Shown here one piece after another: positions 2,862-64,000 of a DNA stretch of 64,000 nt. The notes under the pieces were generated by a model. The model saw nothing but the letters and a program-made list of their open reading frames with translations, made no database searches and was not told the DNA's origin. The stretch covers positions 74,837,590 through 74,901,589 of the forward strand of contig JAVGWX010000004.1 of assembly GCA_036924085.1 (NCBI GenBank). The letters run 5' to 3'. Both the position numbers and the translations under genes were made by a program. This DNA is from Ariolimax columbianus (Eukaryota > Mollusca > Gastropoda > Stylommatophora > Arionidae). Numbering within the stretch: the first letter of the stretch is position 1; each line of letters starts with the position of its first letter.

Positions 2862-2990
2862 CTCCTCTTTCACCACTCGGTGTTGTCGTATGTGAAGTGT
2901 GAATATAGCATGAGATCTGGACGATGAGATATTCATGTTGGTTGAGGCTGTAGCTCGGCTCAAAACACCAGATTTGAGACACTGAAGGGT
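2862..2990 (-). CDS. KIF21-like: KIF21-type kinesin, coding exon 7 (switch I)
   Basis: The acceptor is CTCTTTCAG. The exon encodes [20 protein letters not shown] and then [18 protein letters not shown], the switch I region with the NxxSSRSH nucleotide-sensing motif. The 3' end is the least certain border: GAG|GTTCAT is a weak donor, chosen because similarity to KIF21 stops here and the open frame beyond it is not kinesin-like. A donor 12 nt earlier (CGA|GTGGTG) is possible. The following exon with switch II (DLAGSE) is not in the window. Confidence 0.85.
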
Positions 2991-4406: not shown

Positions 4407-4499
4407 ATCATCAAGAGAAGAAACTGGCCTTATGGTAACGCCAACTATATATATACCACCACTGGCATCTTCATGGATTCTGTGTGCTGATTTTTTCCC
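4407..4499 (-). CDS. KIF21-like: KIF21-type kinesin, coding exon 6
   Basis: The exon is 93 nt (31 codons), with acceptor TTTGTCAG and donor GAT|GTAAGT. It encodes GKKSAHRIHEDASGGIYIVG and then VTIRPVSSLDD. This aligns with the KIF21 segment around RIHEDSTGGIYTVGVTTR before switch I. Both borders are phase 0. Confidence 0.93.
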
Positions 4500-5034: not shown

Positions 5035-5492
5035 TCATATACTTAACTTAACGTCTTTATACTGGTTTAGAAGACTCTTCAGAGTCTGTATACAACCAGT
5101 TCCAGTTACATTATCTTGCTCTAGAAGCTGTACCCATCCAATCTATTCTTAAATGCATAAACCGTCCCAGCCTCCCCCACCTCACTTGGCAATGTATTCC
5201 AAGCATTCACAACTCTCTGGCTAAAAAAATACTTCCTAATATCTAATCTGGACCTCTCCTTAGTCAACTTGTAGATGTGCCCTCTTGTTCTTGTTGGTGG
5301 TTGTATTTTAAAAAACTTGTTATAGTCTACTTTATCCATTCCTCTGATCATCTTATACACCTTTATTAAGTCACCACAAATTCGTCTCTCTTCTAGACAC
5401 TGTAGGCCGGTTCTTTTTAATCTTTCGTCATAACTGTAATTCTGGAATCCCACTATCAGCTTTGTCGCTCTTTTTTTTTGTATTCTCTCCGA
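5035..5492 (-). mobile_element. CR1-type LINE, 3' end
   Basis: The 126-residue open frame reads ERIQKKRATKLIVGFQNYSY, later LQCLEERRICGDLIKVYKMI, KFFKIQ, TRGHIYKLTKERSRLDIRKY and VVNAWNTLPSEV. This is the conserved C-terminus of CR1/Rex1-type LINE reverse transcriptases. The element ends with the TTGTATACAGACTCTGAAG and TAAAGACGTTAAGTTAAG 3' terminus, also seen at 14.6, 44.8 and 48.4 kb. It is cut at 5492 by LINE copy A. Confidence 0.85.
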
Positions 5493-6866
5493 TAGACACA
5501 AATCTCTATCTAACCAATAGGCCGGAGGATAGCCCTAGCTTCTATTCTAGAACATGGCATACCACCTCTACTCCAGATTTGGCCTTTTCCACAGTGGACA
5601 TTCACCATAAAATAGACCGCCAGGTGCTAAACCAATTGGCAGGTAGCGACCACAGGCCAATTAGGCTAGAAATTGATATGGAAGTAGGCCCACAGGAAAC
5701 AAAACCGCTCCCATGTTGGAATTACAAACGAGCTGACTGGGACAGATTTGCAAGTCTGACAGATGGGCTGTGTGAAACCATCAACACACGGAACAACAAA
5801 ATGAAGCCCATGGTGGAAAGCCTAAGCAAAGCAATAATGCAAGCTGCCACTGAAACCATCCCAAGAGGGGCAAGGAAAAATTATAAGCCCTATTGGAATG
5901 ATGATTTGCAGAAAGCGGAAGACACAGTCACAAATGCTAGGAACATGGCAGAGCGAGAACAATCTATGGAGGCAAATATCACCCTCAAAGCCGCCACGGC
6001 GAAATATAAATACACTCTAAACCAAACAGCAAGAGAAAGCTGGAAAAACAAAACAGAAAGCCTCAATTTAGACAAAGAAGGGAACAAACTATGGAAGCTA
6101 GTCAGAGCCATGAATGACGAAACTCCATCAAACAAACAAATTACCATCAAGCAGAGTGACAACATTATCACTGGAAAAAAGGCAGCAAAAGCCTTTATAG
6201 AACATTATGCCAGAGCAAACCACATTGATGTTCCTACAAATAGGCACACAGACATTAATGAAGAACAAAAGAGTCACGACAACATCAATATGGCACCAGA
6301 GGAGCACATGATGGCAAAACTAACAATGAATGAAATGGAAGAGGCCATGAGAACTCTAAAGAAAAAGAAATCGCCCGGAAAAGATGGGCTAACAAATGAA
6401 ATGCTGATGGGCTTGGGCCAAACAGCAAAGAGGAAGTTACTATCAGTCCTGAACCAAAGCTGGAAAAGGGAAATTGTACAGCAGGCATGGAAAGATGCTG
6501 TAATTATACCAGTACCAAAGAAAGAAAAAGATAGAGCAGATCCAAATGGATACAGGACTATCAGTCTGCTGAGCTGTGTAGGAAAACTGATGGAGCGTAT
6601 GATAAACACCAGACTGATGTGGCATCTGGAAGAAAAACACATACTAATTCCACAGCAAGCAGGCTTTAGACAGCACAGATCTACTGAGGATTAGATCACT
6701 CTGATAGCACAGGAAATAGAGGATGCTTACCAGGAGAAAAAACACACAGTAGCGGTTCGGGTGGACTTGGAAAAGGCATTTGACAAGGTCTGGAAAGAGG
6801 GACTTAAAATCAAGCTACAAAGAAGTGAAGTTTGTGGGAAAATGTACAGATGGATCAGCCACTAGG
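5493..6866 (+). mobile_element. I/jockey-type LINE copy A1, truncated at both ends
   Basis: The copy starts inside the APE endonuclease (TSTPDLAFSTVDIHHKI, then SDHRPIRLEIDM, the catalytic SDH) and runs into the reverse transcriptase (SPGKDG, NGYRTISLLSCVGKLMERM, QAGFRQHRSTED). An in-frame TAG at 6692 interrupts RT. It breaks off at about 6866 in the fingers/palm, where a second copy (A2) restarts at an earlier point of the same gene. It therefore has no 3' end of its own. It abuts the CR1 fragment at its left end. Confidence 0.88.
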
Positions 6867-9440
6867 GCAAAAACTTGCTTTCTGGAAAAAAAGCAGCAAA
6901 CGCCTTTGTTGAACACTATGCCAGAGCAAACCACATTGATGTCCCTGCAGACAGGCATACAGACATTAGTGAAGAGCAAAAGGGGCATGACAACATCAAT
7001 ATGGCACCAGAAGAGCATATGATGGCAAAATTAACAATGAATGAAATGGAAGAGGCCATGAGAACGTTAAAGAAAAGGAAATCTCCCGGAAAAGACGGGA
7101 TAACAAACGAAATGTTGATGGGGCTGGGCCAAACAGCAAAAAGGAAACTACTATCAGTCCTGAACCAAAGCTGGAAAAGGGGTATTGTACCCCAGGCATG
7201 GAAAGACGCAGTACTTGTACCAGTACCAAAGAAAGGAAAAGACAAAACAGATCCAAATTGATACAGGCCTATCAGCCTACTGAGCCGTGTTGGCAAGCTG
7301 ATGGAACGTATGATAAACACCAGACTAATGTGGCATCTGGAAGAAAAACACATACTAATTCCACAGCAAGCAGGCTTTAGACAGCACAGATCCACTGAGG
7401 ATCAGGTCATCCTCATAGCCCAGGAAATAGAAGATGCCTACCAGGAGCAAATACACACAGTAGCGGTTTGGGTGGACCTGGAAAAGGCATTTTACAAATT
7501 CTGGAAAGAGGGACTTAGAGTCAAGCAAAGAAGAAGTGAAGTTTGTGGGAAAATGTACAAATGGATCAGTCACTACCTCAAAAACAGAACGGCCAGAGTT
7601 CAAGTACAAGGGCAGATGAGCAAAAAGGTGACACTTGAGCAGGGAGTACCCCAAGGGGGAGTACTGTCACCCACACTCTTCCTGGTGTATATAAATGACA
7701 TTACAGAGAATATACCAAGAAGAGTCATTAGCTCAATGTTTGCAGATGATCTGGCTATGTGGACCTCTGAAAAGAATCTCACCATAGCAAGAAATCAGAT
7801 GCAGCAGGCCCTAACATCGCTGGAAGAGTGGGCGAACTCATGGCTGGTCAAAATAAACAAGGAAAAAACGACATGTACAATATTCTCGCTATCAAACAAA
7901 CCCCAAAACACAAAATTTAGTCTTAACGGCAAATATCTGCAGCCAAACGACAACCCAAACTACCTGGGAGTCACATTTGATCGGCGCATGACATGGAAAA
8001 GTCAGATCGAGAGAAACCGAATGAGAGCCAGACAAAGAATGGCAATCATGAGGAAACTTGCTGGCACAAGCTGGGGAGCAGACAAAAGTATACTAAAGAA
8101 ACTGTACACTGGAAGAGTGAGACAAGTTCTCGAGTATGGCATTGCGGCATGGACAACAGCAGCAAAGGCAAACTTTGATAATATTAGCAAACTTCAAAAC
8201 CAAGCCATGAGAGTTATAACAGGAGGCATGAAGTCAACGCCAATTGTAGAACTTGAAAAGATTATAAATCTGCAATCCATGACCAACAGAAGAGACTGCA
8301 GAGCCCAGCAGCAAGCAGAGAAACTAAGAATACTGACAGACCATCCAATCCATCAGAGACTAAATAGATTTGGAAATGGGAAACTAAAGCGGAGAAACTT
8401 TGCAGAAATAGCCAAAGCAAAGATGAGTGAAGACCCTATGAACACGTTAACAACACCAAAGCCCATCCCTACTGTATGCAAACCTACCTGGAAGCAGCAT
8501 ATCATTCTGTAGGTGGTAGAAAATATACCAGGTATTGGAAACAAGAACAGCCAGACTGAAAAAGAAAGAAGAGACATAACCCTGAGGTACATAACGGAAA
8601 ACTACCCAAGCATGGACTGGGCCCATGCATTCACCGACGGTTCTGTAACAAACACAACACAGAACGGAGGGGCAGGGGTATTCCTGAGCCTACCAAATGG
8701 TAGAAAAATAACACTGTCAGTGGCAACTGGAAAATACTCAAGCAATTTCATAGGGGAGGCTGAGGCACTGAGGGCTGCAGTAGAAGCAATGCTGACAGAC
8801 AAAAGAAATGAAAGCCAGATAGTCCTGTTTACAGATGTCCTGGCCGTAGTCACAGCACTAAATAGCCAGAAAAATACTGAACTTAATGATTTAAGAGCAG
8901 TACTCTGTCAACTATGCCAGCAGTCCGCACCAAAAAGAGTAGTGGTACAGTGGGTTCCATCCCACTGTAACATCCAAGGCAACGAGGAGGCAGACAGACT
9001 GGCAAAAGAAGGTGCAAGACTACCACAACCAGATTCTAGTCTGACCTACGAAGAGTCCAAAGGCTAATTAGGGCCAGATACATGGCCAAATGGGAAACAG
9101 AACATACTGGCTACACAAAAAATGATGCCTATTACCAGTTGAACAGAAGAGAGCAGGTCGTGGTCTTCAGACTCTGCACAGGCCACTACAGACTGAGGTA
9201 CCACCTAATCAATAAACTGAAGATAGGTGGCACTGACGAATGCACTTGTGGTACATGGAAAATGGCCGCTGAACATCTGCTGCAAAACTGCCCGACATAC
9301 AAGGACCAGAGAAAGCACATGTGGCCATACCAGTGGCAACATTAGACAAGCTCTATGGCAGTGTCGACAGCCTCAGGATGACCGCTGCTTTTTTAGAAAA
9401 AATACAGATTGACGTTTGACATCGTACGAAGAAGAAGAAA
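6867..9440 (+). mobile_element. I/jockey-type LINE copy A2, 5'-truncated, inactivated
   Basis: The copy begins at the KKAANAFVEHYARANHIDV segment and runs through RT: motif A VWVDLEKAFYKFW (consensus DLEKAFDKVW), motif B LEQGVPQGGVLSPTLFLVYI and motif C MFADDLAMW. A linker follows, then RNase H (AFTDGSVTN; FTDVLAVVTAL; VQWVPSHCNIQGNEEADRLA) and a C-terminal cysteine motif (CTCG...H...C). Lesions are a TGA near 7259, a TAG at about 8510 and a frameshift near 9067. The 3' end is CGTACGAAGAAGAAGAA at about 9424. This is KIF21 intron 5 sequence. Confidence 0.9.
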
Positions 9441-10033: not shown

Positions 10034-10090
10034 TTTAAACAGAGGGTCTTTTGAGGCTTCCAAAAGATCAATTATTTCTTCGTTGTACAG
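10034..10090 (-). CDS. KIF21-like: KIF21-type kinesin, coding exon 5
   Basis: The exon is 57 nt (19 codons), encoding LYNEEIIDLLEASKDPLFK between acceptor TGTTTCAG and donor AAA|GTAAGT. LYNEE follows directly on the FME that ends exon 4, giving the family motif QF(M/L)ELYNEE. Both borders are in phase 0. Confidence 0.93.
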
Positions 10091-14663: not shown

Positions 14664-14771
14664 CAAGACGACCTAAAATAACGTCATTAGTGTTTTATCC
14701 TACCTCCATAAACTGTGCAAGATGACCTAAAACAGGGTCACATGTGTTTTATCCTACCTCCATAAACTGTG
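14664..14771 (-). repeat. 54-bp tandem duplication covering the exon 4 splice donor
   Basis: Two 54-bp units, 14664-14717 and 14718-14771, share TTTTATCCTACCTCCATAAA. The right unit includes the last 14 nt of KIF21 exon 4 plus its donor. The left unit is an intronic copy of the same exon end and GTAGGA donor. Confidence 0.9.
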
Positions 14772-14946
14772 CTGTAACTTTAAACTCTGGTGTAGGCTCC
14801 TGCTTCTCTAAGGCTAGGCTGCGTCTCTTCTCAATGCCTTTAAAGAGATGGTCCACAGCTCTGGGAACTATACCAATTTCTTCTGTAATGGTTATAATTG
14901 AAGTGTCAAAGCCTGTACCCATAGTGTAAGTTTTACCAGAGCCAGT
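14758..14946 (-). CDS. KIF21-like: KIF21-type kinesin, coding exon 4 (P-loop)
   Basis: The exon is 189 nt (63 codons), with acceptor GTCTTTCAG and donor GAG|GTAGGA. It starts with [14 protein letters not shown], the nucleotide-binding loop. Ser replaces the more usual Ala (GQTGAGKT), a change seen in other kinesins and compatible with function. It continues through [19 protein letters not shown] to [11 protein letters not shown]. The last 14 nt and the donor are repeated 54 bp downstream in the intron. Reading past the authentic donor meets an in-frame TAA at the third codon. Confidence 0.96.
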
Positions 14947-16754: not shown

Positions 16755-16797
16755 CTGACCATATGCAAACACTGTAGCATTGTAGCCCTCAAAGCAC
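16755..16797 (-). CDS. KIF21-like: KIF21-type kinesin, coding exon 3 (micro-exon)
   Basis: This 43-nt micro-exon begins with one base that completes a Gly codon and encodes CFEGYNATVFAYGQ. It is bounded by acceptor TTGTTCAG and a consensus donor CAG|GTAAGT. The P-loop is split exactly after Gln: the next exon starts with TGSGKT. The 43-nt length with the phase change fits its neighbours exactly and supports the model. Confidence 0.95.
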
Positions 16798-22214: not shown

Positions 22215-22958
22215 TCTATTACACACTTACCTCATCTGCTCACTACACTTACCCCTCCTGCTCAATACATTTACCTGTCTGCTCACTACACTTACAGCAC
22301 CTGCTCACTACACTTACCCCACCTGCACACTACACTTACCTGCCTGCTAACTACACTTATTCCCACCTGCTCACTACACTTACCCCACCTGCACACTTCA
22401 CTTACCTGCCTGCTCACTACACTTACCCCACCTGCTCACTACATTTACCTGCCTGCTCACTACACTTACCTGCCTGCTCACTGCACTTACCCCACCTGCT
22501 CACTACACTTACCCTACCTGTTCACTAAACTTATCCTTCTACTCCCTACACTTATCATTCTACTCCCTACACTTATCCTTCTACTCCCTACACTTATCCT
22601 TCTACTCCCTACACTTATCCTTCTACTCCCTACACTTATCCTTCTACTCCCTACACTTATCCTTCTACTCCCTACACTTATCCTTCTACTCCCTACACTT
22701 ATCCTTCTACTCCCTACACTTATCCTTCTACTCACTACACTTATCCTTCTATTCCCTACACTTATCCTTCTACTCCCTACACTTATCCTTCTACTCACTA
22801 CACTTATCCTTCTATTCCCTACACTTATCCTTCTACTCCCTACACTTATCCTTCTACTCACTACACTTATCCTTCTATTCCCTACACTTATCCTTCTACT
22901 CCCTACACTTGCCCTTCAACTCACTACACTTACCCTTCAACTCACTACACTTACCCTT
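22215..22958. repeat. 21-bp minisatellite adjoining the KIF21 exon 2 splice donor
   Basis: About 35 units of 21 bp. Right units (22909-22958) read CACTTACCCTTCAACTCACT; middle units carry CTTATCCTTCTACTCCCTAC; left units (22230-22510) carry CTTACCCCACCTG or CTTACCTGCCTG. On the gene strand the right units are GTTGAAGGGTAAGTGTAG, that is, the exon 2 end plus its donor. Because 21 is a multiple of three, long frames are open through it; these are not genes. Confidence 0.95.
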
Positions 22959-23134
22959 CAACTAGGTTACTAATGCATGTGTTGTAAACATCATCCTGCT
23001 GTGTGTGCCCATCAAATACAAAGTCAAATGTGAAAGCCTTGTCTTTTCCTAATATCACTTGACGGCCCTTATCTGTGACAGCTGTGCAGATATGGCACAT
23101 GTCCATCTTCTCCTTAGCATTCTGAGGTCGAATT
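22955..23134 (-). CDS. KIF21-like: KIF21-type kinesin, coding exon 2
   Basis: The exon is 180 nt, with acceptor TTCATTGCAG and donor GAAGG|GTAAGT. It encodes [19 protein letters not shown] through [16 protein letters not shown] to [13 protein letters not shown], which matches the N-terminal part of the KIF21 motor. Its last Gly codon is split (GG|G) with exon 3. The donor is the outermost unit of the 21-bp minisatellite next to it at lower coordinates, so the exon end and the repeat share sequence. Confidence 0.95.
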
Positions 23135-24271: not shown

Positions 24272-26050
24272 CTTCTTCTTCTTCTTCTTACGCAGTCAGA
24301 CAGTAACCATTATTTTTTCGAAAAAAGCAGCGGTCATCCTGAGGCTGTCGACACTGCCATAGAGCTTGTCTAGTGCTCCAGGTAGGTTTTCGTACAGTAG
24401 GGATGGGCTTTGGTGTTAGTGCGTTCATAGGGTTTTCGTGCATCTTTGCTTTGGCTATTTCTGCAAAGTTTCTTCGCTTTAGTTTCCCATTTCCGAAATT
24501 GTTTAGTCTCTGGTGCATTGGATGGTCAGTCTTCTGAGTTTTTCTGATTGCAGCTGGGCTCTGCAGTCTCTTCTGTCGGTCATGGATTGCAGTTTTGTAA
24601 TCTTTTCGAGTTATACAATTGGCATTGACTTCATGCCTCCTGTTTTAATTTTTAATTAAATTTAATTTTATCGAAGTTCGCCTTTGCTGCTGTTGTCCAT
24701 GCCGCAATGCCATACTCGAGAACTTGTCTCACTCTTCCAGTGTACAGTTTCTTTAGTATACTTTCGTCTGCTCCCCAGCTTGTGCCAGCAAGTTTCCTCA
24801 TGATTGCCATTCTTTCTCTGGCTCTCATTCGGTTTCTCTCGATCTGACTTTTCCATGTCATGCGCCGATCAAATGTGACTCCCAGGTAGTTTGAGTTGTC
24901 GTTTGGCTGCAGGTATTTGCCGTTTAGACTTAATTTGGTGTTTTGGGGTTTGATTGATAGCGAGAATATTGTACATGTTTTTTCCTCGTTTATTTTGACC
25001 AGCCATGAGTTCACCCACTCTTCCAGCGATGTTAGGGCCTGCTGCATCCGATTTCTTGCTATGGTGAGATTCTTTTCAGAGGTCCACATAGCCAGATCGT
25101 CTGCAAACATTGAGCTATGGACTCTTCTTGGTATATTCTCTGTAATGTCATTTATATACACCAGGAAGAGTGTGGGTGACAGTACTCCCCCTTGGGGTAC
25201 TCCCTGCTCAAGTGTCACCTTTTTGCTCATCTGCCCTTGTACTTGAACTCTGGCCGTTCTGTTTTTGAGGTAGTGGTTGATCCACTTGTACATTTTCCCA
25301 CAAACTTCACTTCTTCTTAGCTTGACTCTAAGTCCATCTTTCCAGACTTTGTCAAATGCCTTTTCCAGGTCCACCCAAACCGCTACTGTGTGTTTCTGTT
25401 CCTGGTAGGCATCTTCTATTTTCTGGGCTATGAGGATGACCTGATCCTCAGTGGATCTGTGCTGTCTAAAGCCTGCTTGCTGTGGAATTAGTATGCATTT
25501 TCCTTCCAGATGCCACATCAGTCTGGTGTTTATCATACCTTCCATCAGTTTGCCGACACAGCTCAGTAGGCTGATAGGCCTGTATCCATTTGTTTCTGTT
25601 TTGTCTTTTCATTTCTTTGGTACTGGTACAAGTACTGCATCTTTCCATGCCTGGGGTACAATACCCCTTTTCCAGCTTTGGTACAGGACTGATAGCAGTT
25701 TCCTCTTTGCTGTTTGGCCCAGCCCCATCAGCATTTCGTTTGTTATCCCGTCTTTTCCGGGAGATTTCCTTTTCTTGAATGTTCTCATGGCCTCTTCCAT
25801 TTAGTTCATTGTTAATTTTGCCATCATATGCTCTTCTGGTGCCATATTGATGTTGTCGTGCCCCTTTTGCTCTTCATTAATGTCTGTATGCCTATCTGCA
25901 GGGACATCTATGTGGTTCGCTCTGGCATAGTGTTCGACAAAAGCGTTTGCTGCTTTTTTTCCAGTGAGCAAGTTTTCGCCCTGCTTGATGGTAATTTGTT
26001 TGTTCGACGGAGTTTCGTCATTCATGGCTCTGACTAGCTTCCATAGTTTC
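24272..26050 (-). mobile_element. I/jockey-type LINE copy B, 5'-truncated, RNase H deleted
   Basis: Bounded by an 11-bp perfect target duplication ATATAGGCTTT (24261-24271 and 26051-26061). The minus strand carries RT: VWVDLEKAFDKVWKDG (motif A), LEQGVPQGGVLSP (motif B) and MFADDLAMW (motif C). The 3' end is (GAA)n. The RNase H domain is absent: near 24374 the C-terminal end joins directly to the linker (RKPTW), a deletion of roughly 0.85 kb relative to copies A2, C and D. A TGA and an AT-rich patch near 24640-24665 are further lesions. Confidence 0.92.
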
Positions 26051-26061
26051 ATATAGGCTTT

Positions 26062-26225
26062 GACTTGTGCCATTTTATGTCTGGACGTCACCAATAACAA
26101 TCCCAACATGTACCGCATCATCACAATTGGGGTATCTCTAGTGCAGTCCAGAACCAGTCGCATACCTTCATTCTGGATGCGTTCCAACCTTTCACACTGT
26201 GTTCTTGATAGTGGCTGTAATTATT
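26062..26225 (-). mobile_element. LINE RT thumb fragment, part 2 of the element at 23323-24271
   Basis: The minus strand reads CERLERIQNEGMRLVLDCTR, DTPIVMMRYMLGLLLV and SRHKMAQVKAY. The frame continues across copy B into KAYIHVTTDMQHPLH at 24271, which confirms that copy B landed in this element. Confidence 0.75.
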
Positions 26226-33660: not shown

Positions 33661-34435
33661 ACTATGATTTTTCTCCGTGGTCATTAGATTTGATTGTTTT
33701 GGCTATAAGTAGCTCGTGAGGTCGATTCCTCCGTTTAGCTGCGGTGGAGGTGCTAATGATAACACTCAGAATCGACCATACTTGGCTTAAATCCTCTCCG
33801 ATTTCCCGTGCCCTGTGTCTCAGGTCGCTTCCATTGTTTTGTTAAAGTGAATTGTGCAGTAGTGTAAGGAATCAGATCGGACGTAAATGACGTAGAAATT
33901 GTTAATATCGACCTTCAAAAAACGCATTAATCCGGCGTGCCTCTAAATAACGAAATATGCAGCAAACTATAATAACACGATGCCAGTCATCCTACACAAC
34001 AGTAGCATGAGTCCAGACTCTCTATTTATAATTCGAATCAAATTTAATTTATAAACAGTAAAACCCCAAAATATTATTTTCAACCTATCTTTGCAGAGTA
34101 CACAAAAAGGCACCGCCATCTTGGTCGCTATGTCCACCAATACTCGCACTGTACTAGCACAACAACGGAGATGACATCCACATTGGTGCAGGTGAAGGAC
34201 CTTGCCACATTGGGGAAATTGGCTTCATTATTGCCAGACGTCATGTACCAAATGTTCTTTCAGTTGAGATTATCAGTTCCCATATTGCTACACTCCGTCT
34301 CCAGGTACTTGGACAAAGTAAGCATCTACTCATTGTACATGTCTTGCTTGTTATGCGCCTCACAGCGAGTATGCTGATGACGATATCGACAAATTATATG
34401 AATTGCTGGAAGAACAACTACGTCAACCAGCATTT

Positions 34436-34935
34436 GGCTTGGCTTGGCTTGGCTTGGCGTGGCTTGGCGTGGCTTGGCTTGGCTTGGCTTGGCTTGGCGT
34501 GGCGTGGCTTGGCGTGGCTTGGCTTGGCTTGGCTTGGCTTGGCTTGGCTTGGCGTGGCGTGGCTTGGCTTGGCGTGGCTTGGCTTGGCTTCGTTCGTTCT
34601 CAATCTCCAACTAACAAACCCTGAAAGGGCTTAAGTAGCAGAATGTAGTCCAGAGAACGGATTGCGTTGTGTCGTAGTTTACAGCTTGACCCTCGATATT
34701 AGCATCTTTTGGTCCAACACATCCGACTTTAGCAAGCATTTTTTGAGTACCGGGTTAGCATTCCCTCTTCGATCCCTTCTGCTTAGCCAGTCTGCCCTGA
34801 TGCAGCCTGTTATCCAGGATCACCGCATGGAGGTGTAGAAGGGTCTTGGCATCTCTGGTTCGCTGGCCCTGACGCTAGCAGTCAGCTATGGGTCGCTGAC
34901 CACTGCAGCTCATGCGCTGCTCAGCATCTTGATCC
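34436..34935 (-). mobile_element. Family X repeat with expanded (AAGCC)n tail
   Basis: Flanked by a perfect 12-bp target duplication CAACCAGCATTT (34424-34435 and 34936-34947). At left is a run of about 31 GGCTT/GGCGT pentamers (34436-34590); the X body follows to its head (CAGCATCTTGATCC). The tail differs from the (GAA)n tail of other X copies. Confidence 0.92.
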
Positions 34936-40134: not shown

Positions 40135-42168
40135 TCAGTGTTACTTCACCTATCAAGTTGTCTTACTCCTGGTCTATTGTCTCACCTATCAAGTTGTCTT
40201 ACTCCTGGTCTATTGTCTCACCTGTCAAGTTGTCTTACTCCTGGTCTATTGTCTCACCTGTCAAGTTGTCTTACTCCTGGTCTATTGTCTCACCTGTTCT
40301 GTTGTCTTACTCCTGGTCTATTGTCTCACCTGTCGTTGTCTTACTCATGGTCTGTTGTATCACGTGTTCAGTTGTCTCACTCATGGTTTGTTGTCTTACC
40401 TGTCCAGTTGTCTTACTCCTGGTTTATTGTCTCACCAATGATCACCTGTCCAGTTGTCTTACGCCTGGTTTATTGTCTCCCCAATGGTCACCTGTCCAGT
40501 TGTCTTACTCCTGGTTTATTGTTTCATCTGTCCAGTTGTCTTACTCCTGGTTTATTGTCTCACCTGTTCAGTTGTCTTACTCCTGGTTTATTGTTTCACC
40601 TGTCCAGTTGTCTTACTCCTGGTTTTTTGTCTCACCTGTCCAGTTGTCTTACTCCTGGTTTATTGTCTCACCTGTCCAATTGTCTTACTCCTGGTTTATT
40701 GTTTCATCTGTCCAGTTGTCTTACTCCTGGTTTATTGTTTCACCTGTCCAGTTTTCTTACTCCTGGTTTATTGTCTCACCTGTCCAATTGTCTTACTCCT
40801 GGTTTATTGTTTCATCTGTCCAGTTGTCTTACTCCTGGTTTATTGTCTCACCTGTCCAGTTGTCTTACTCCTGGTTTATTGTTTCACCTGTCCAGTTGTC
40901 TTACTCCTGGTTTATTGTCTCACCTGTCCAGTTGTATTACTCCTGGTTTATTGTTTCATCTGTCCAGTTTTCTTACTCCTGGTTTATTGTCCCACCTGTC
41001 CAATTGTCTTACTCCTGGTTTATTGTTTCATCTGTCCAGTTGTCTTACTCCTGGTTTATTGTTTCACCTGTCCAGTTTTCTTACTCCTGGTTTATTGTCT
41101 CACCTGTCCAATTGTCTTACTCCTGGTTTATTGTTTCATCTGTCCAGTTGTCTTACTCCTGGTTTATTATTTCACCTGTCCAGTTTTCTTACTCCTGGTT
41201 TATTGTCTCACCTGTCCAGTTGTCTTACTCCTGGTTTATTGTCTCACCTGTTCAGTTGTCTTACTCCTGGTTTATTGTTTCACCTGTCCAGTTTTCTTAC
41301 TCCTGGTTTATTGTTTCACCTGTCCAGTTGTCTTACTCCTGGTTTATTGTTTCACCTGTCCAGTTGTCTTACTCCTGGTTTATTGTCTCACCTGTCCAAT
41401 TGTCTTACTCCTGGTTTATTGTCTCACCTGTTCAGTTGTCTTACTCCTGGTTTATTGTCTCACCTGTTCAGTTGTCTTACTCCTGGTTTATTGTCTCACC
41501 TGTCCAGTTGTATTACTCCTGGTTTATTGTCTCACCTGTCCAGTTGTATTACTCCGGGTTTATTGTCTCACCTGTTCAGTTGTATTACTCCTGGTTTATT
41601 GTCTCACCTGTCCAGTTGTCTTACTCCTGGTTTATTGTCTCACCTGTCCAGTTGTATTACTCCTGGTTTATTGTCTCACCTGTCCAGTTGTATTACTCCT
41701 GGTTTATTGTTTCACCTGTCCAGTTTTCTTACTCCTGGTTTATTGTCTCACCTGTCCAATTGTCTTACTCCTGGTTTATTGTTTCATCTGTCCAGTTGTC
41801 TTACTCCTGGTTTATTGTTTCACCTGTCCAGTTTTCTTACTCCTGGTTTATTGTTTCACCTGTCCAGTTTTCTTACTCCTGGTTTATTGTTTCATCTGTC
41901 CAGTTGTCTTACTCCTGGTTTATTGTCTCACCTGTCCAGTTTTCTTACTCCTGGTTTATTGTTTCACCTGTCCAGTTTTCTTACTCCTGGTTTATTGTCT
42001 CACCTTTTCAGTTGTCTTACTCCTGGTTTATTGTCTCACCTGTTCAGTTGTCTTACTCCTGGTTTATTGTCTCACCTGTCTAGTTGTCTTACTCCTGGTT
42101 TATTGTTTCACCTGTCTAGTTGTCTTACTTCTGGTTTATTGTCTCATCTGTGGTCACCTGTGAAGTTG
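40135..42168. repeat. 36-bp minisatellite, about 55 units
   Basis: The unit reads CAGTTGTCTTACTCCTGG followed by TTTATTGTCTCACCTGTC. Units differ at a few fixed sites (GTCTCACC/GTTTCATC/GTTTCACC; CAGTTG/CAATTG/CAGTTTT). Because 36 is divisible by three, all three plus frames stay open (up to 692 codons), giving 12-residue periodic peptides. There is no promoter, splice site or conserved protein, so these frames are a by-product of the repeat. Confidence 0.95.
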
Positions 42169-42515
42169 GCTTGACTTCGTTCTCAATCTCCCGCTAACAA
42201 ACCCTGTAAAAGGCTTTGCAAGTAGCAGCATGTAGTCCAGTGAACGGAATGTGCTGTGTCATAGTTTACAGCTTGGCTGCGGTATTTCCACCTTTCGGTC
42301 CAACACATTCGACTTCAGCAGGCATGTTTTAGTTACTGGTTAGCCTTCCCTCTTCGATCCCTTCTACTTAGCCAGTCTGCTCTGTTGCAGGCTTGTTATC
42401 CAGGATCACCATGTGGAGGTGTAGAAGGGTCTTGATAGCTCTGGTTCACTGGCCCTGACGCTAGCAGTCAGCAATGAGTTGATGACCACTGCAGCTCATG
42501 CGCTGCTCAGCATCT
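42169..42515 (-). mobile_element. Family X repeat inserted in the 36-bp array
   Basis: Flanked by TCACCTGTGAAGTTG (42154-42168) and TCACCTGTCAAGTTG (42516-42530), a 15-bp target duplication made of array sequence. The body runs from TTCGTTCTCAATCTCC to the head CTGCTCAGCATCT. Confidence 0.9.
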
Positions 42516-42544
42516 TCACCTGTCAAGTTGTCTTCTATGCATAA

Positions 42545-47459: not shown

Positions 47460-47526
47460 AGAAGAAACGAATTCACATTTCTGAAATCTAGTATCTGTGC
47501 TTTTTCTTATCATAGTACTTGTTTTC

Positions 47527-47846
47527 TTCTGAGTCTGGTCTATAGACTGTGTACCAATTGGCTATTTATTTCTTAACCTTCTGAGTCTGGTCTATAGACT
47601 GTGTACTAATTGGCTATTTATTTCTTAACCTTCTGAGTCTGGTCTATAGACTGTGTACCAATTGGCTATTTATTTCTTAACCTTCTGAGTCTGGTCTATA
47701 GACTGTGTACTAATTGGCTATTTATTTCTTAACCTTCTGAGTCTGGTCTATAGACTGTGTACCAATTGGCTATTTATTTCTTAACCTTCTGAGTCTGGTC
47801 TATAGACTGTGTACCAATTGGCTATTTATTTCTTAACCTTCTGAGT
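47527..47846. repeat. 52-bp minisatellite carrying AATAAA, at the TRDMT1 3' end
   Basis: Six full units of 52 bp start TTCTGAGTCTGGTCTATAGA and include ATTGGCTATTTATTTCTTAA, followed by a partial unit. Units are almost identical (ACC/ACT at one site). On the minus strand each unit contains AAATAAATAG, hence AATAAA. The array starts about 50 nt past the TRDMT1 stop codon. Confidence 0.95.
47787..47835 (-). promoter_or_regulatory. Candidate polyadenylation signals of TRDMT1
   Basis: The first minus-strand AATAAA after the TAA at 47897 lies at about 47830, within the first minisatellite unit met by transcription. The same hexamer recurs every 52 bp. This spacing gives a 3' UTR of roughly 80-100 nt if the first is used. 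The choice is inference. Confidence 0.5.
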
Positions 47847-52888: not shown

Positions 52889-54051
52889 TCTGGTTGTTCC
52901 TGCCAGTAGTCATATGCTTGTCTCAAAGATTAAGCCATGCATGTCTAAGTTCACACTGTCTCACGGTGAAACCGCGAATGGCTCATTAAATCAGTCGAGG
53001 TTCCTTAGATGACACGATCCTACTTGGATAACTGTGGCAATTCTAGAGCTAATACATGCTTACCAAGCTCCGACCCTCTCGGAAAGAGCGCTTTTATTAG
53101 TTCAAAACAAATCGTCGTTTCCCCTCGCGGGGTTGCGGCGTCCCCACTGGTGACTCTGGATAACTTTGTGCTGATCGCATGGCCTCATGTGCCGGCGACG
53201 CATCTTTCAAATGTCTGCCCTATGAAATGTCGATGGTACGTGACATGCCTACCATATTTGTAACGGGTAACGGGGAATCAGGGTTTGATTCCGGAGAGGG
53301 AGCATGAGAAACGGCTACCACATCCAAGGAAGGCAGCAGGCGCGCACTTACCCACTCCCGGCACGGGGAGGTAGTGACGAAAAATAACAATACGGGACTC
53401 TTTCGAGGCCCTGTAATTGGAATGATTACACTTTAAACCCTTTAACGAGGATCTATTGGAGGGCAAGTCTGGTGCCAGCAGCCGCGGTAATTCCAGCTCC
53501 AATAGCGTATATTAAAGTTGTTGCAGTTAAAAAGTTCGTAGTTGGATCTCAGGAGCAGGCGGGCGGTCCGGCTCGCGCCGGTTCACTGCCCGTTGTCTCC
53601 TGCCCTACTGTCTGCCGGCTCTCTCCCACGGGTGCTCTTCGCTGAGCGTCCTGGGTGGCCGGCGCGTTTACTTTGAAAAATTAGAGTGTTCAAAGCAGGC
53701 CTCGGCTGCCTGAATAATGGTGCATGGAATAATGGAATAGGACCTCGGTTCTATTTTGTTGGTTTTCGGAACTGGAGGTAATGATTAACAGGGACAAACG
53801 GGGGCATTCGTATTGTGGCGTTTGAGGTGAAATTCTTGGATCGCCGCAAGACGAGCTACTGCGAAAGCATTTGTCAAGAATGTTTTCATTAATCAAGAAC
53901 GAAAGTCAGAGGCGCGAAGACGATCAGATACCGTCGTAGTTCTGACCATAAACGATGCCGACTAACGATCCACAGGAGTTGCTTCGATGACTCTGCGGGC
54001 AGCTTCCGGGAAACCAAAGTGTTTGGGTTCCGGGGGAAGTATGGTTGCAAA

Positions 54052-54082
<31 letters not shown>

Positions 54083-54175
54083 TCACCAGGAGTGGAGCCT
54101 GCGGCTTAATTTGACTCAACACAGCCAAACACTGAAATGATTGACATGCCGAGAGCACTTTCGTTGGGTCTAATA
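52889..54175 (+). rRNA. 18S rRNA, 5' two-thirds, truncated and diverged (pseudogene/orphon)
   Basis: Starts CTGGTTGTTCCTGCCAGTAG (normal form TGATCCTGCCAGTAG) and follows 18S in order: CTTGTCTCAAAGATTAAGCC, CGCGAATGGCTCATTAAATC, GCAGCCGCGGTAATTCCAGC, GTGAAATTCTTGGATCGC, CTTAAAGGAATTGACGGAAG and GCGGCTTAATTTGACTCAAC. Similarity fades after CAACAC and is gone by about 54175. About 1.3 of 1.8 kb is present. Missing are the decoding-site region and 3' end, ITS1, 5.8S and ITS2. It cannot give a functional rRNA. Confidence 0.93.
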
Positions 54176-54251
54176 TGAAAGGGGTGCTGGAATTAGACCC
54201 TCGAAATCTGGGGCTATCCTCTCGGTAGCTTGACTGTCTCGCATCCAGTGT

Positions 54252-54485
54252 TCGTTAAAGGAGTTGACGGAAGGGCACCACCAGGAGTGGAGTCTGCGGC
54301 TTAATTTGACTCAACACGCCAATACTGTAGAACGACTAACAAATCGAGAGCACTTTCGTTGGGTTTAATAGTGAACGTGTGCTGGTATTAGACTCACGGA
54401 AGACAGGTCAGCTCTTTAACCTTCTAATGAAAGAACGCTACGGAAATCGTGTTTAACCCCGCAGAAACCGCAGGTTTCAGATACC
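54252..54485 (+). rRNA. Duplicate 18S segment fused to 28S-like sequence
   Basis: AAAGGAGTTGACGGAAGG to GCGGCTTAATTTGACTCAAC (54257-54315) repeats the 18S block of 54060-54120. Then GAGAGCACTTTCGTTGGG runs directly into TTAATAGTGAACGTGTGCTG and AAGACAGGTCAGC, which resemble the 28S stretch CTAATAGGGAACGTGAGCTGG...AGACAGGTTAG. The same fusion in weaker form follows 54175. Confidence 0.7.
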
Positions 54486-54526: not shown

Positions 54527-54750
54527 CTAATAGTGAACGGGTGCTGGAAATATATCATAGGAAAACAGGTCAGTTTTACCCTACTAATGACAGGGCGTTG
54601 CTACGGTAATCCTACTCAATTCGAGAGGAGCCGCATACATTTTGGTTCACGTACCAGGCTGATAAGCCAATGGCGCGAGGCTACCATGTGAGGGATTACG
54701 GCCGAACGCCTGTAAGCCGGAATCCCGCCCAAAATCTCAGCACCACTGCA
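54527..54750 (+). rRNA. 28S rRNA 3' region, including the sarcin-ricin loop, diverged
   Basis: ACAGGTCAGTTTTACCCTAC (54575-54594), GGTAATCCTACTCAATTCG with AGAGGAGCCGC (sarcin-ricin loop region), GCCAATGGCGCGAGGCTACC, GGGATTACGGCCGAACGCCT and AATCCCGCCC follow the order of the 28S 3' end. The loop AGTACGAGAGGA reads AATTCGAGAGGA, a change expected to be harmful, so this is a pseudogene. Confidence 0.85.
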
Positions 54751-55440
54751 ATGGGAGGCTTCGACATGGTCGGGACCTGGGGCTTGCGCCGAAGCCCTAC
54801 CCGGTCGAGCCGCAGAAAGAGGTCTCTGCTATCCGCTGATCAAAGCGGGCGGATAGCTGCTCGATATTCACCCTATACGGCGATGGGGAGCGAAACCACC
54901 AACATAAGACTTAGTTCTTGGTCGGAGTGTCAAAAACAGTAGAGCAGCCACCTCACTGTGAACTGTCGAGATACAACCTATGACCATGAGATTTGTCCGC
55001 ACACCAGGCGAACAACATCTCCGTGACATTACCAGGCTTGTCCCCTGGTTAAATGCACTTCTGCCTTGATCTCTACCTCTATATGCTATCAACCATACCA
55101 ATGGACGCAGAAGAGACTAGCGGACATTGCACATCTGCCCTATTGTGTCAACCTCCCAGGTGGCGGGGAATGCCAGGCGTACCATCACTGCAGAGAAGCT
55201 GAGAAAATAAAGGGAGCAAAGAGATACCCCACTCACATGCAAATGCTACGTTCTGGCAGGACGTGACGATCCTGGGATACAGACACACTGGACTGCCTCT
55301 CTTCCGTGTTAGTACAAACTAGTACATAGTCCATATCATATATCATATCTCATATATCACTGCACCCTATAGACGCTAGTAGTGAAGACTCGTTAGTCCT
55401 GTAAGACAACTTCCATAAGAGAGACAACTCTGATCACAAA
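54751..55440. other. Boundary between rDNA fragment and LINE copy C
   Basis: The first part may be the end of 28S or its spacer; the last part may be LINE 5' UTR. No conserved frame was found. A minor frame at 55066-55266 has several Cys and His residues (LPYCVNLPGGGECQAYHHC) but no recognisable zinc knuckle. Confidence 0.35.
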
Positions 55441-58400
55441 CAACTGCTGCCTTGCAGATAGGCTGGGAACATCCAAAGGCTAAGGAGGGCATCCCTACAG
55501 AAACGCCTGTTGAAATCGGATGCACTGGGCCACAGGCTTAACGAAACAGTATCGCAGTATGATGTCAGTACAACTTATCAGAAAAACGTATGGCGCTCAT
55601 CCTGCGGAGTCCCGCCAGGCAGCGAGAGTGCAGGGCCTCACGCCTCGAAGGGGCCCACCCTTCACTACTGGTGGTCACCCACCCATGTGTCGTGGAGTCA
55701 AGGCACATGGCTATGGGGCAATCTCTATTGACCAAAAACTCAAGACCCTCAAAATACTACAGTGGAATGCGGAGGGAGTCATTAACAAAAAGCTTTCCCT
55801 AACACATCATTTGCATGAAGGTAAGATTGATGTGGCATGTATTCAAGAAACGCACCTCAACAGCAAACATAAATTCTCAATCAGAGGATACCAGGCCTGG
55901 ATAGAGAAGGGCACAAAGGAGGGGGTCTGATACTGACCCGTAACTGCATACCGAGTAGCGCGGTATCTGTCAATCACACCGGACAAGCAGAAATTTTAGG
56001 AGTTGACATAATGGCTCAAGAGACGAAGATCCGCATCTTCAACCTGCATGGACCACCAAATAAGGATCTGTCGCTCTCGAGTATGGAAGTCAAAGACTCC
56101 AACTGAATAGTAGTTGGAGACTTCAACAGCCACTCGGAGAGATGGGGATACTCGGACACAGACAGCAGAGGTGACGAAGTGGAAGATTGGGAGATAGACA
56201 CAAATCTCCATCTAATCAATAGGCCGGAGGATAGCCCTAGCTTTTATTCTAGAACATGGCATACCACCTCTACTCCAGATTTGGCCTTCTCCACAATGGA
56301 CATTCACCATAAAATAGACTGCCAGGTGCTAAACCAATTGGCAGGTAGCGACCACAGGCCAATTAGGCTAGAAATTGATATGGAAGTAGGCCCACAGGAA
56401 ACAAAACCGCTCCCACGTTGGAATTACAAACGAGCCGACTGGGACAGATTTGCAAGCCTGACAGATGGGCTGTGTGAAACCATCAACACACGGAACAACA
56501 AAATGAAGCCCATGGTGGAAAGCCTAAGCAAAGCAATAATGCAAGCTGCCACTGAAACCATCCCAAGAGGGGCAAGGAAAAATTAAAAGCCCTATTGGAA
56601 TGATGAGTTGCAGAAAGCGGGAGACGCAGTCACAAATGCTAGGAACATGGCAGAGCGAGAACAAACTATGGAGGCAAATATCGCCCTCAAAGCCGCCACG
56701 GCGAAATACAAATACACTCTAAACCAAACAGCAAGAGAAAGCTGGAAAAACAAAACGGAAAGCCTCAACTTAGACAAAGAAGGGAACAAACTATGGAAGT
56801 TAGTCAGATCCATGAATGACGAAACTCCGGCAAACAAACAAATTACCATCAAGCAGGGCGAAAACTTGCTCATTGGAAAAAAAGCCGCAAACGCCTTTGT
56901 TGAACACTATGCCAAAGCGAACCACATAGATGTCCTTGCAGATAGGCATACGGACATTAATGAAGAGCAAAAGGGGCACGACAACATCAATATTGCACCA
57001 GAAGAGCATATGATGGCAAAAGTAACAATGAATGAAATGGAAGAGGTCATGAGAACATTAAAGAAAAGGAAATCTCCCGGAAAAGACGGGATAACAAACG
57101 AAATGCTGATGGGGCTGGGCCAAACAGCAAAGAGGAAACTGCTATCAGTCCTGAATCAAAGCTGGAAAAGGGGTATTGTACCCCAGGCATGGAAAGACGC
57201 AGTACTTGTACCAGTACCAAAGAAAGGAAAAGACAAAACAGATCCAAATGGATACAGGCCTATCAGCCTACTGAGCTGTGTCGGCAAACTGATGGAACGT
57301 ATGATAAACACCAGACTGATGTGGCATCTGGAAGAAAAACGCATACTAATTCCACAGCAAGCAGGCTTTAGACAGCACAGATCCACTGAGGATCAGGTCA
57401 TCCTCATAGCCCAGGAAATAGAAGATGCCTAACCAGGAACAGAAACACACAGTAGCGGTTTGGGTGGACCTGGAAAAGGCATTTGACAAAGTCTGGAAAG
57501 ATGGACTTAGAGTCAAGCTAAGAAGAAGTGAAGTTTGTGGAAAAATGTACAAGTGGATCAACCACTACCTCAAAAACAGAACGGCCAGAGTTCAAGTACA
57601 AGGGCAGATGAGCAAAAAGGTGACACTTGAGCAGGGAGTACCCCAAGGGGGAGTACTGTCACCCACACTCTTCCTGGTGTATATAAATGACATTACAGAA
57701 AATATACCAAGAAGAGTTCATAGCTCAATGTTTGCAGACGATCTGGCTATGTGGACCTCTGAAAAGAATCTCACCATAGCAAGAAATCGGATGCAGCAGG
57801 CCCTAACATCGCTGGAAGAGTGGGCGAACTCATGGCTGGTCAAAATAAACGAGGAGAAAACCACATGTACAATATTCTCGCTATCAATCAAACCCCAAAA
57901 CACCAAATTAAGTCTAAACGGCAAATACCTGCAGCCAAACGACAACCCAAACTACCTGGGAGTCACATTTGATCGGCGCATGACATGGAAAAGTCAGATC
58001 GAGAGAAACCGAATGAGAGCCAGAGAAAGAATGGCAATCATGAGGAAACTTGCTGGCACAAGCTGGGGAGCAGACGAAAGTATACTAAAGAAACTGTACA
58101 CTGGAAGAGTGAGACCAGTTCTCGAGTATGGCATTGCGGCATGGACAACAGCAGCAAAGGCGAACTTCGATAAAGTTAGCAAACTCCAAAACCAAGCCAT
58201 GAGAGTTATAACAGGAGGCATGAAGTCAACGCCAATTGTAGAACTTGAAAAAATTACAAAACTGTAATCCATGACCAACAGAAGAGACTGCAGAGCCCAG
58301 CTGCAATCAGAGAAACTCAGAAGACTGACTGACCATCCAATGCACCAGAGACTAAACAATTTCGGAAATGGGAAACTAAAGCGAAGAAACTTTGCAGAAA

Positions 58401-59430
58401 TAGCCAAAGCAAAGATGCACGAAAACCCCATGAACGCACTAACAACACCAAAGCCCATCCCTACTGTACGAAAACCTACCTGGAGGCAGCATATATTTCC
58501 AGAGGTGGTAGAAAATATACCAGGTATTGGAAACAAAAACTGCCAGTCCGAAAAAGAAAGAAGAAATACTACCCTGAGTTACATAACGGAAAACTACCCA
58601 AGCATGGACTGGACCCATGCATACACTGATGGTTCCGTAACAAATACAACACAGTACGGAGGGGCAGGAGCATTCCTGAGCCTACCAAATGGCAGAAAAA
58701 TAACACTTTCAATCGCTACTGGAAAATACACAAGCAATTTCAGAGCGGAGGCAGAGGCACTGAGGGCGGCAGTGGAAGAAATGGTGACAGGTAAAAGGAA
58801 TGAAAGCCACATAGTCCTGCTTACAGATGCACTGGCCGTAGTCACAGCACTGAAAAGCCAGAAAAATACTGAACTTACTGATTTAAGAGCAGTACTCTGT
58901 CAACTATGCCAGCAGGCCGCACCAAAAAGGATAGTGGTGCAGTGGGTTCCATCTCACTGCAACATCCAAGGCAACGAGGAGGCAGACAGACTGGCAAAAG
59001 AAGGTGCAAAACTACCACAACCTGATACTAGTATGACATACGAAGAGTCAAAACGGCTTATTAGAGCTAGATACATGACCAAATGGGAAACCGAACATAC
59101 TGGCTACACCAAAAACGATGCCTATTACCAGTTGAACAGAAGAGAGCAGGTCGTGGTCTTCAGACTTCGCACTGGCCACAATAGACTCAGGTACCACCTA
59201 TTCAACAAATTGAAGATAGGTGTCACCGACGAATGCCCGTGTGGTACCGGGAAAATGACCGCTGAGCATTTGCTGCAAAACTGCCGACATACGAGGATCA
59301 GAGAGAGCAGATGTGGCCATCACCAGTGGCAACACTAGAAAAGCTCTATGGCAGTGTCGACAGCCTCAGGATGACGGCTGCTTTTTTCGAAAAAATAATG
59401 GTTACTGTCTGACTGCGTACGAAGAATAAT
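55441..59430 (+). mobile_element. I/jockey-type LINE copy C, nearly full length, inactivated
   Basis: Domains in order: 5' region with the shared core (55507-55540); APE endonuclease LKILQWNAEGVINKKLS, IQETHLN, VVGDFNSHSERWGY and SDHRPIRLEIDM (55740-56400); RT SPGKDG, VWVDLEKAFDKVW, GVPQGGVLSPTLF and MFADDLAMW (57070-57770); RNase H HAYTDGSVTNTTQ, LLTDALAVVTAL and VQWVPSHCNIQGNEEADRL (58610-59010); C-terminal CPCG...H...C. Lesions: in-frame stops near 55928, 56104, 56584 and 58265, and a one-base insertion near 57429 (CCTAACCAGG for CCTACCAGG). The 3' end is GCGTACGAAGAATAAT. It lies in the last TRDMT1 intron, antisense to the gene. Confidence 0.93.
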
Positions 59431-62560: not shown

Positions 62561-64000
62561 TTCTTCTTCTTCATCGTACGCAGTCAGACAGTAATATTTA
62601 TTTTTTCTAAAAAAGCAGCCGTCATCCTGAGGCTGCCGACACTGCCGTAGAGCTTGTCTAGTGTTGCCACTGGTGATGGCCACATCTGCTCTCTCTGATC
62701 CTCGTATGTCGGGCAGTTTTGCAGCAAATGCTCAGCGGTCATTTTCCCGGTACCACACGGGCATTCGTCGGTGCCACCTATCTTCAATTTGTTGAATAGG
62801 TGGTACCTCAGTCTATTGTGGCCAGTGCGAAGTCTGAAGACCACGACCTGCTCTCTTCTGTTCAACTGGTAATAGGCATCGTTTTCGGTGTAGCCAGTAT
62901 GTTCGGTTTCCCATTTGGTCATGTATCTAGCTCTAATAAGCCGTTTTGACTCTTCGTATGTCATACTAGTATCTGTTTGTGGTAGTTTTGCACCTTCTTT
63001 TGCCAGTCTGTCTGCCTCCTCGTTGCCTTAGATGTTGCAGTGAGATGGAACCCACTGCACCACTACCCTTTTTGGTGCGGACTGCTGGCACAGTTTGCAG
63101 AGTCTGCTCTTAAATCATTAAGTTCAGTATTTTTCTGACTTTTTAGTGCTGTGACTACGGCCAGAGCATCTGTAAGCAGGACTATGTGGCTTTCATTCCT
63201 TTTACCTGTCACCATTTCTTCCACTGCCGCCCTCAGTGCCTCTGCCTCCGCTCTGAAATTGCTTGTGTATTTTCCAGTAGTGAATGAAAGTGTTATTTTT
63301 CTGCCATTTGGTAGGCTCAGGAATGCTAATGCCCCTCCGTTCTGTGTTGTATTTGTTACGGAACCGTCGGTGTATGCATGGGTCCAGTCCATGCTTGGGT
63401 AGTTTTCCGTTATGTAACTCAGGGTAGTATCTCTTCTTTCTTTTTCAGACTGGCAGTTTTTGTTTCCAATACCTGGTATATTTTCTACCACCTCTGGAAA
63501 TATATGCTGCATCCAGGTAGGTTTTCGTACAGTAGTGATGGGCTTTGGTGTTGTTAGTGCGTTTATGGGGTCTTCGTGCTTCTTTGCTTTGGCTATTTCT
63601 GCAAAGTTTCTCCGCTTTAGTTTCCCATTTCCCAAATTGTTTAGTCTCTGGTGCATTGGATGGTCAGTCAGTCTTCTGAGTGTCTCTGATTGCAGATGGG
63701 CTCTGCAGTCTCTTCTGTCGGTCATGGATTGCAGTTTTGTAATCTTTTCAAGTTCTACAATTGGCGTTGACTTCATGCCTCCTGTTATAACTCTCATGGC
63801 TTGGTTTTGGAGTTTGCTAACTTTATCGAAGTTCGCCTTTGCTGCTGTTGTCCATGCCGCAATGCCATACTCGAGAACTGGTCTCACTCTTCCAGTGTAC
63901 AGTTTCTTTAGTATACTTTCGTCTGCTCCCCAGCTTGTGCCAGCAAGTTTCCTCATGATTGCCATTCTTTCTCTGGCTCTCATTCGGTTTCTCTCGATCT
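62561..64000 (-). mobile_element. I/jockey-type LINE copy D, 3' part, continues past the right edge
   Basis: The minus strand has the RT thumb MRARERMAIMRKLAGTSWGA, the linker and RNase H (HAYTDGSVTNTTQNG; LLTDALAVVTAL). The QWVPSHCNIQGNEEAD equivalent has CAA to TAA (stop), and there is a frameshift near 63060. The C-terminus CPCGTGKMTAEHLLQNCP follows, then (GAA)n at 62556-62573. It is very close in sequence to copy C. Confidence 0.9.

What the first reader, a model, noticed from the sequence alone, without database searches (positions are those of the whole stretch)
22215..22958. A 21-bp minisatellite whose repeat unit is a KIF21 splice donor
Seen: on the gene strand exon 2 ends GTTGAAGG|GTAAGTGTAGTGA, and that stretch is the first unit of a roughly 35-unit array extending into the intron. 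Nearest copies keep GGGTAAGT (or GGGCAAGT at about 22912); the long middle block reads GGATAAGT, which destroys the donor GT; distal units read CAGGTAAGT, a full consensus donor. The unit is 21 nt, so frame is kept, and TAA falls in frame in every GGGTAAGT unit. Inference: the array grew from, or captured, the exon border, and the middle units may have drifted so as not to compete.
Basis: partly seen in the sequence, partly recalled or inferred. Interest (0 to 1): 0.82.

Follow-up and report, generated by a model that had tools for sequence, protein, structure and literature searches.

The report
Splice-signal minisatellite at KIF21 exon border
In a kinesin (KIF21) gene of what is likely a mollusc, the predicted end of one exon and the splice signal beside it open a 35-unit tandem repeat that runs into the next intron; the repeat likely grew by local copying errors, and the cell would be expected to ignore it and keep using the first, true signal.

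Summary
The array is real: 35 units on the minus strand, 22963 to about 22218, starting 8-9 nt inside a predicted KIF21 exon and including its donor. Units 1-2 are identical; unit 3 has GC; units 4-21 have AT; 13 of 14 distal units keep GT.

Two corrections. Distal units share only the first 13 intron bases with the border; their flank is no more exon-like than shuffles, so the array has two layers. Donor loss in the middle block fits one mutation spread by repeat turnover; distal donor and flank positions diverge alike (12 of 169, 7 of 104, p = 1.0), so drift to avoid competition is unsupported. All 14 later GT donors would add an in-frame stop.

Exon 4's donor also lies in a 54-bp tandem duplication.

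The kind is known: border-spanning 'mirages' of amphioxus, reported not to disturb splicing (PMC3087553, PMC3902484, passages), and the human 6-16 donor minisatellite. The host is likely a mollusc, new among the papers seen. No transcripts were available.

The parts
22955..23134 (-). KIF21 exon 2 (180 nt, predicted): IRPQ...CISNLVEG; acceptor TTGCAG|A, last base 22955
   Evidence: 64% identical to a recalled KIF21A over 61 aa; Pfam PF00225 for the six-exon translation, E 8e-60
22218..22963 (-). 35-unit minisatellite; first unit spans the predicted exon 2/intron 2 border
22900..22962 (-). Units 1-3: GTTGAAGG|GTAAGTGTAGTGA twice, then GTTGAAGG|GCAAGTGTAGGGA
22522..22899 (-). Units 4-21: 18 units with AT in place of the donor GT; order abcabcabc, then seven a, then two variants
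22218..22521 (-). Units 22-35: 13 of 14 keep GT; consensus flanks CAGGTGGG (mostly 22-nt spacing) or GCAGGCAG (21-nt spacing), not exon-like
16755..16797 (-). KIF21 exon 3 (CFEGYNATVFAYGQ), predicted; phase fits exon 2
14758..14946 (-). KIF21 exon 4 ([10 protein letters not shown]...QFME), predicted
14664..14771 (-). Second border-spanning tandem duplication: 54 bp x 2, 87% identical; the first copy holds 14 nt of exon 4 and its donor, the second repeats donor GAG|GTAGGA at 14703
10034..10090 (-). KIF21 exon 5 (LYNEEIIDLLEASKDPLFK), predicted; weakest match (E 0.054)
4407..4499 (-). KIF21 exon 6 (GKKSAHRIHEDASGG...SSLDD), predicted
2862..2990 (-). KIF21 exon 7 ([12 protein letters not shown]...), predicted; 3' end not settled

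Best explanation
This is a 35-unit minisatellite whose first unit spans the predicted exon 2/intron 2 border of a KIF21 gene, and it likely arose in place by at least two rounds of tandem copying of that border, a 'mirage' in the sense used for amphioxus. Shown: position, unit types, exon-like flank in units 1-21, intron-only likeness in units 22-35, and a stop right after Gly for every later GT donor. Inferred origin: an early round copied the start of the intron (donor plus about 13 nt, with downstream intron as flank), giving the distal 14 units; a later round, in a register that included the last 8 exon bases, gave units 1-3. One descendant lost the donor G and was spread as a 63-bp higher-order block and then as single units, giving units 4-21. 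Inferred working: the first donor is likely still the productive one; the others would be decoys that the spliceosome mostly ignores, and any transcript using one would end at a stop directly after Gly of LVEG and likely be destroyed by nonsense-mediated decay. As long as the first donor is used the protein is unchanged, so such an array would be tolerated on the donor side of an exon. I think it likely has no dedicated function.
For: Array and unit classes. Frame without stops and matching splice phases for predicted exons 2-6. Exon end conserved as L[VIL][ED]G in 29 of 30 aligned homologues (17 of 120 listed, 13 of 120 listed). Proximal and middle flanks resemble the exon end (shuffle P 0.004 and 0.012), distal flanks do not (0.81 and 0.69). 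5 of 8 exon-side against 0 of 13 intron-side differences for each distal consensus, Fisher p 0.003. Middle order abcabcabcaaaaaaaxx. All 14 later GT donors give a stop at residue 61 of the translation. A second border-spanning duplication at exon 4 of the same gene. Mirages in amphioxus are reported not to disturb regular splicing: PMC3087553 (passages), PMC3902484 (passage).
Against: No transcripts: use of the first donor is not shown. By a recalled human matrix six array donors score as high as the true donor or higher, four of them higher; by U1 duplex energy eight are stronger than the true donor (-12.2 to -14.2 against -11.9 kcal/mol). The array RNA is not structured enough to hide them (z +1.2), so mis-splicing could be frequent. 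Units are copies of one another, so the Fisher and shuffle values treat linked changes as independent. The order of the two rounds is inferred. An intronic repeat that later overwrote the border would look similar. 4.5% of all window positions have a nearby downstream match as good as that of the exon 2 border and 2.3% as good as that of exon 4, so a repeat at a donor is not by itself rare here. The assembly itself was not checked.
Confidence: 0.7

Rival explanations
1. The array works as a splicing regulator: donor-like units bind U1 and TAGGGA units bind hnRNP A1-like silencers, so array length would set how much KIF21 mRNA is productive.
For: Of 412 GT sites in intron 2, 23 score 8 or more and 20 of these, the true donor included, lie in the array. 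15 TAGGGA in the array against 12 in the other 63,255 nt of the gene strand. Every later GT donor gives an early stop. A paper seen only in the listing (PMC3223206) reports hnRNP F and A1 on AGGGA sites, there in an enhancer; the silencing role assumed here is recalled.
Against: Repeats multiply any motif, so both counts may reflect single origins. Donor and flank positions diverge equally in distal units, so no constraint on donors is visible. Amphioxus mirages are reported not to alter splicing (PMC3087553, PMC3902484, passages).
Confidence: 0.1
2. The middle block lost GT under selection against competing donors.
For: 19 of the 20 units that lack GT are units 3-21, the block that directly follows units 1 and 2.
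Against: 18 of them fit one mutation plus amplification. Farther donors, four scoring above the true one, were kept. Unit 2, the nearest rival, keeps a perfect copy.
Confidence: 0.07
3. An unrelated intronic minisatellite reached the border and overwrote the first intron bases by conversion, so that the border resembles the array rather than having seeded it.
For: Distal units match only the intron side. Another minisatellite in the window, 40146-42151, carries 27 CAGGTRAG on the same strand, and no KIF21 exon was found beside it, so donor-like repeats can arise without a known border.
Against: Units 1-21 carry the exon flank, which is constrained by coding, and units 1 and 2 are identical.
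Confidence: 0.13

Closest known systems
'Mirages' of amphioxus: minisatellite-like tandem duplications of exon-intron borders in Adh3, globin, TnC and PGBD5 genes (PMC3087553, passages; PMC3902484, passage)
   Same: Tandem units span an exon-intron border and many repeat the AG/GT signals; units are homogenised inside the cluster and less so at its edge.
   Different: Host here is likely a mollusc, not a cephalochordate; 14 of 35 units lack the exon side; the middle units have lost GT; 35 units, against 3 and 6 in the two BflGb6 haplotypes; both 5' and 3' borders are hit in amphioxus, here only donors (2 of 5 settled donors, 0 of 6 acceptors). Splicing and length instability not tested here.
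[quoted passage not shown] 1995; title seen in reference lists; paper not held)
   Same: A minisatellite at a donor in which units carry donor sequences.
   Different: From recall, the 6-16 units are 12 bp and their donors are used; here every later GT donor would add an immediate stop and use is unknown.
Intron gain or change by internal tandem repeats (PMC2812944, passages; models of Rogers 1989 and Zhuo 2007 as cited in PMC3087553)
   Same: Repeats at exon-intron borders offer new splice sites.
   Different: Here no new intron or exon is predicted; the repeat lengthens an existing intron.

Membership tests
Mirage (border-spanning minisatellite) | Tandem array includes an exon-intron border | tested here: met
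   Array reaches 8-9 nt into predicted exon 2; units 1 and 2 identical over 21 nt
Mirage (border-spanning minisatellite) | Repeat units contain both exon-derived and intron-derived sequence | tested here: inconclusive
   Yes for 21 of 35 units; for the distal 14 only the intron side matches
Mirage (border-spanning minisatellite) | Regular splicing of the host gene is undisturbed | not testable with these tools
   No transcripts held; predicted exons 2-6 and their phases are intact
Mirage (border-spanning minisatellite) | Length instability between alleles or cells | not testable with these tools
   Only one copy of the locus was at hand
6-16 type donor minisatellite | Units carry donor sequences | tested here: met
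   15 of 35 units have GT at the donor position
6-16 type donor minisatellite | Using later donors keeps the reading frame open (feature recalled) | tested here: not met
   All 14 later GT donors give a stop at residue 61
Intron gain by tandem duplication | A new intron position created by the duplication | not tested
   Intron position was not compared with relatives' gene structures

The most novel reading that the evidence does not exclude
The KIF21 array is a length-tunable splicing rheostat: its 14 spare donors recruit U1 into unproductive, stop-bearing splices while its 15 TAGGGA motifs hold them off, so that array length sets motor-protein dose; and border copying recurs in this gene, since exon 4 shows a second case.
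Probability: 0.06. Interest if true: 0.75.

Novelty: new member of a known kind. Interest (0 to 1): 0.4.

Why it matters
Border-spanning minisatellites were described mainly in amphioxus in the papers seen here; a long one in a likely mollusc, with a second small one in the same gene, suggests they occur more widely. Such arrays are natural tests of how the spliceosome picks one donor among many equal or stronger copies, and of how introns lengthen without harming the exon.

Tried and rejected
Selection on donors in the array: no difference between donor and flank divergence in distal units. RNA structure hiding the donors: fold no better than shuffles (17 of 20 shuffles folded at least as well). 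Acceptor-side duplications: none at the six acceptors tested (best match 14 of 24; the exon 2 24-mer lay 1 nt off the border). Further copies of the unit core in the window: none outside the array at up to 2 mismatches. Exon 1: not found. Chance that donors lie in tandem arrays: random placement of the window's ten arrays (my merging of the 17 rows) covers at least one of six donors in 30% and at least two in 3.7% of trials, so the exon 4 case is suggestive only. One of those six, exon 7, has an unsettled end; its rows are not centred on a donor and I dropped them, as I dropped the exon 5 row, which is off by one base (one search has it right).

Literature: ten searches, the full cap. One search (mollusc and minisatellite terms) showed 15 of 805 papers and I saw no mollusc mirage among those titles and abstract starts; an abalone intron minisatellite (PMC6905558, passages) is not described there as border-spanning. 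This is no proof that none is in print.

Full report
What was checked. The stretch was read on the gene (minus) strand. The sequence GTTGAAGGGTAAGTGTAGTGA occurs twice in direct succession from 22962, and a related core recurs 35 times down to 22230. Tandem Repeats Finder reports the array within 22223-22963 under periods of 21, 22, 42 and 63. With up to 2 mismatches the 14-nt core has 30 matches in the window, all in the array, against 0.40 expected.

The gene. Six exons of a kinesin were predicted on the minus strand from similarity to a recalled KIF21A query and from splice consensus: 23134-22955, 16797-16755, 14946-14758, 10090-10034, 4499-4407 and 2990 to about 2862 (end unsettled). The exon 5 match is weak on its own (E 0.054). 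The joined translation scores as kinesin motor (PF00225, E 8e-60). The nearest solved chains are a 'kinesin-like protein' (7x4n) and KIF4; the names of the nearest listed relatives are mostly KIF21.

The host. The first protein search admitted only short proteins and put fish first, 64%. The second, with a wider length range, scored only the 7973 candidates sharing most words. Setting aside row P0241, its best rows are molluscan: Plakobranchus, Elysia, Mactra, Batillaria, Tegillarca and Sinanodonta at 68-71% (P0242-P0247 of 120 listed). The margin is small: Limulus and a cuttlefish reach 68%. No amphioxus is among the 120 names listed. For a retrotransposon protein of the window the 12 of 120 listed rows that name an organism are all gastropods, though the top rows are unnamed. 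So the host is likely a mollusc, probably a gastropod. No upstream exon was found in the window.

The border. The exon ends CTA GTT GAA GG and exon 3 starts G TGC, which restores GGG (Gly). The four residues LVEG are kept as L[VIL][ED]G in 29 of 30 homologues that I picked and aligned (17, 13; the exception is LVES). The exon end is therefore under coding constraint and is the likely source of its likeness in the array.

Unit classes. Units 1 and 2 are identical. Unit 3 has GC for GT and the T-to-G change shared by most middle units. Units 4-21 all have AT for GT; their order is abcabcabc, seven a, two variants, a 63-bp higher-order repeat followed by single-unit spread. Units 22-35 have GT in 13 of 14. 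Spacing is 21 nt for the first 20 intervals and 22 (8), 21 (5) or 23 (1) for the last 14.

Two layers. Against unit 1, the distal units differ on average at 5.2 of 8 exon-side positions but at only 1.0 of 13 intron-side positions. Aligned to the exon end, their flanks score no better than shuffles (P 0.81 and 0.69), while the middle and proximal flanks do (0.012 and 0.004). Read in the exon's frame the distal consensus flanks would not encode LVEG. The distal units therefore look like copies of the intron start and not of the exon; the proximal and middle units copy the whole border. These tests treat linked copies as independent and are guides only.

Donor strength. With a recalled human matrix, six array donors score at least as high as the true donor (10.12) and four score higher; three are CAG|GTAAGT (12.61). 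By U1 duplex energy eight are stronger than the true donor. Of 412 GT sites in intron 2, 23 score 8 or more; 20 of these, the true donor included, are in the array. All 14 later GT donors give a stop at residue 61, directly after Gly. The array RNA shows no unusual structure (z +1.2).

If middle units had lost GT to avoid competition, many independent losses would be expected; the data fit about three losses (unit 3, the middle founder, unit 29). In distal units the donor side and the flank have diverged alike (12 of 169 and 7 of 104, Fisher p 1.0; GTAAGT alone 2 of 78, p 0.30; 13 of the 14 units, unit 29 left out).

A second case. Exon 4's donor lies in a 54-bp unit present twice, 14771-14718 and 14717-14664, 87% identical, with 24 of 24 bases around the border repeated 54 nt downstream. 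The second donor would likewise follow a stop (GTA GGA TAA, read). Of the five donors with settled ends, two lie in such repeats and three do not. As a control, 4.5% of all window positions have a downstream match as good as the exon 2 border and 2.3% as good as the exon 4 border, and random placement covers two of six donors in 3.7% of trials. One case was chosen beforehand by the finding, so the pair is weak evidence for a tendency.

A control against over-reading. The 36-bp array at 40146-42151 also carries consensus donors on the gene strand (27 of the strand's 31 CAGGTRAG), and no KIF21 exon was found next to it; exons of other genes were not sought. A donor in every unit is thus not by itself proof of descent from an exon border; the exon flank is the better sign.

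Known relatives. Amphioxus mirages are tandem repeats across exon-intron borders in Adh3, globin, TnC and PGBD5 genes, reported not to disturb splicing (PMC3087553, passages; PMC3902484, passage). The human 6-16 minisatellite with multiple donors was seen only as a title in reference lists. The present array meets the core mirage feature, meets the exon-plus-intron unit feature in 21 of 35 units, and could not be tested for splicing or instability. I file it as a likely new member of that kind in a likely mollusc.

Verdict. A real, border-spanning minisatellite with two layers of growth; likely passive. Interest is moderate because the kind is known, although the number of strong rival donors makes it a good natural test of donor choice.

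Noticed in passing
14664-14771: 54-bp tandem duplication across the exon 4 donor of the same gene, 87% identical.
   Followed up: partly
40146-42151: 36-bp minisatellite, about 55 units, with CAG|GTGAG-like donors on the gene strand (27 CAGGTRAG) and no KIF21 exon found beside it; a stray unit-like piece lies near 42510-42535 (by eye).
   Followed up: partly
52890-54257 and 54554-54994: 18S-like stretch (model 4-1831 in only 1368 nt) followed by a match to the 3' part of 28S: likely a broken rDNA copy.
   Followed up: no
5348-9345, 24288-26220, 55514-59338, 62584-63998: Several copies of what looks by eye like one non-LTR retrotransposon; one copy was searched and its named relatives are gastropod.
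   Followed up: partly
34434-34590: TTGGC pentanucleotide array, about 31 copies.
   Followed up: no
47526-47846: 52-bp tandem array, 6.2 copies, 98% matches.
   Followed up: no
22955-22962: The exon codon is GTT (Val) where 7 of 9 aligned molluscs have Ile; the three b-type middle units carry A at that base, so exchange between exon and array is conceivable.
   Followed up: no
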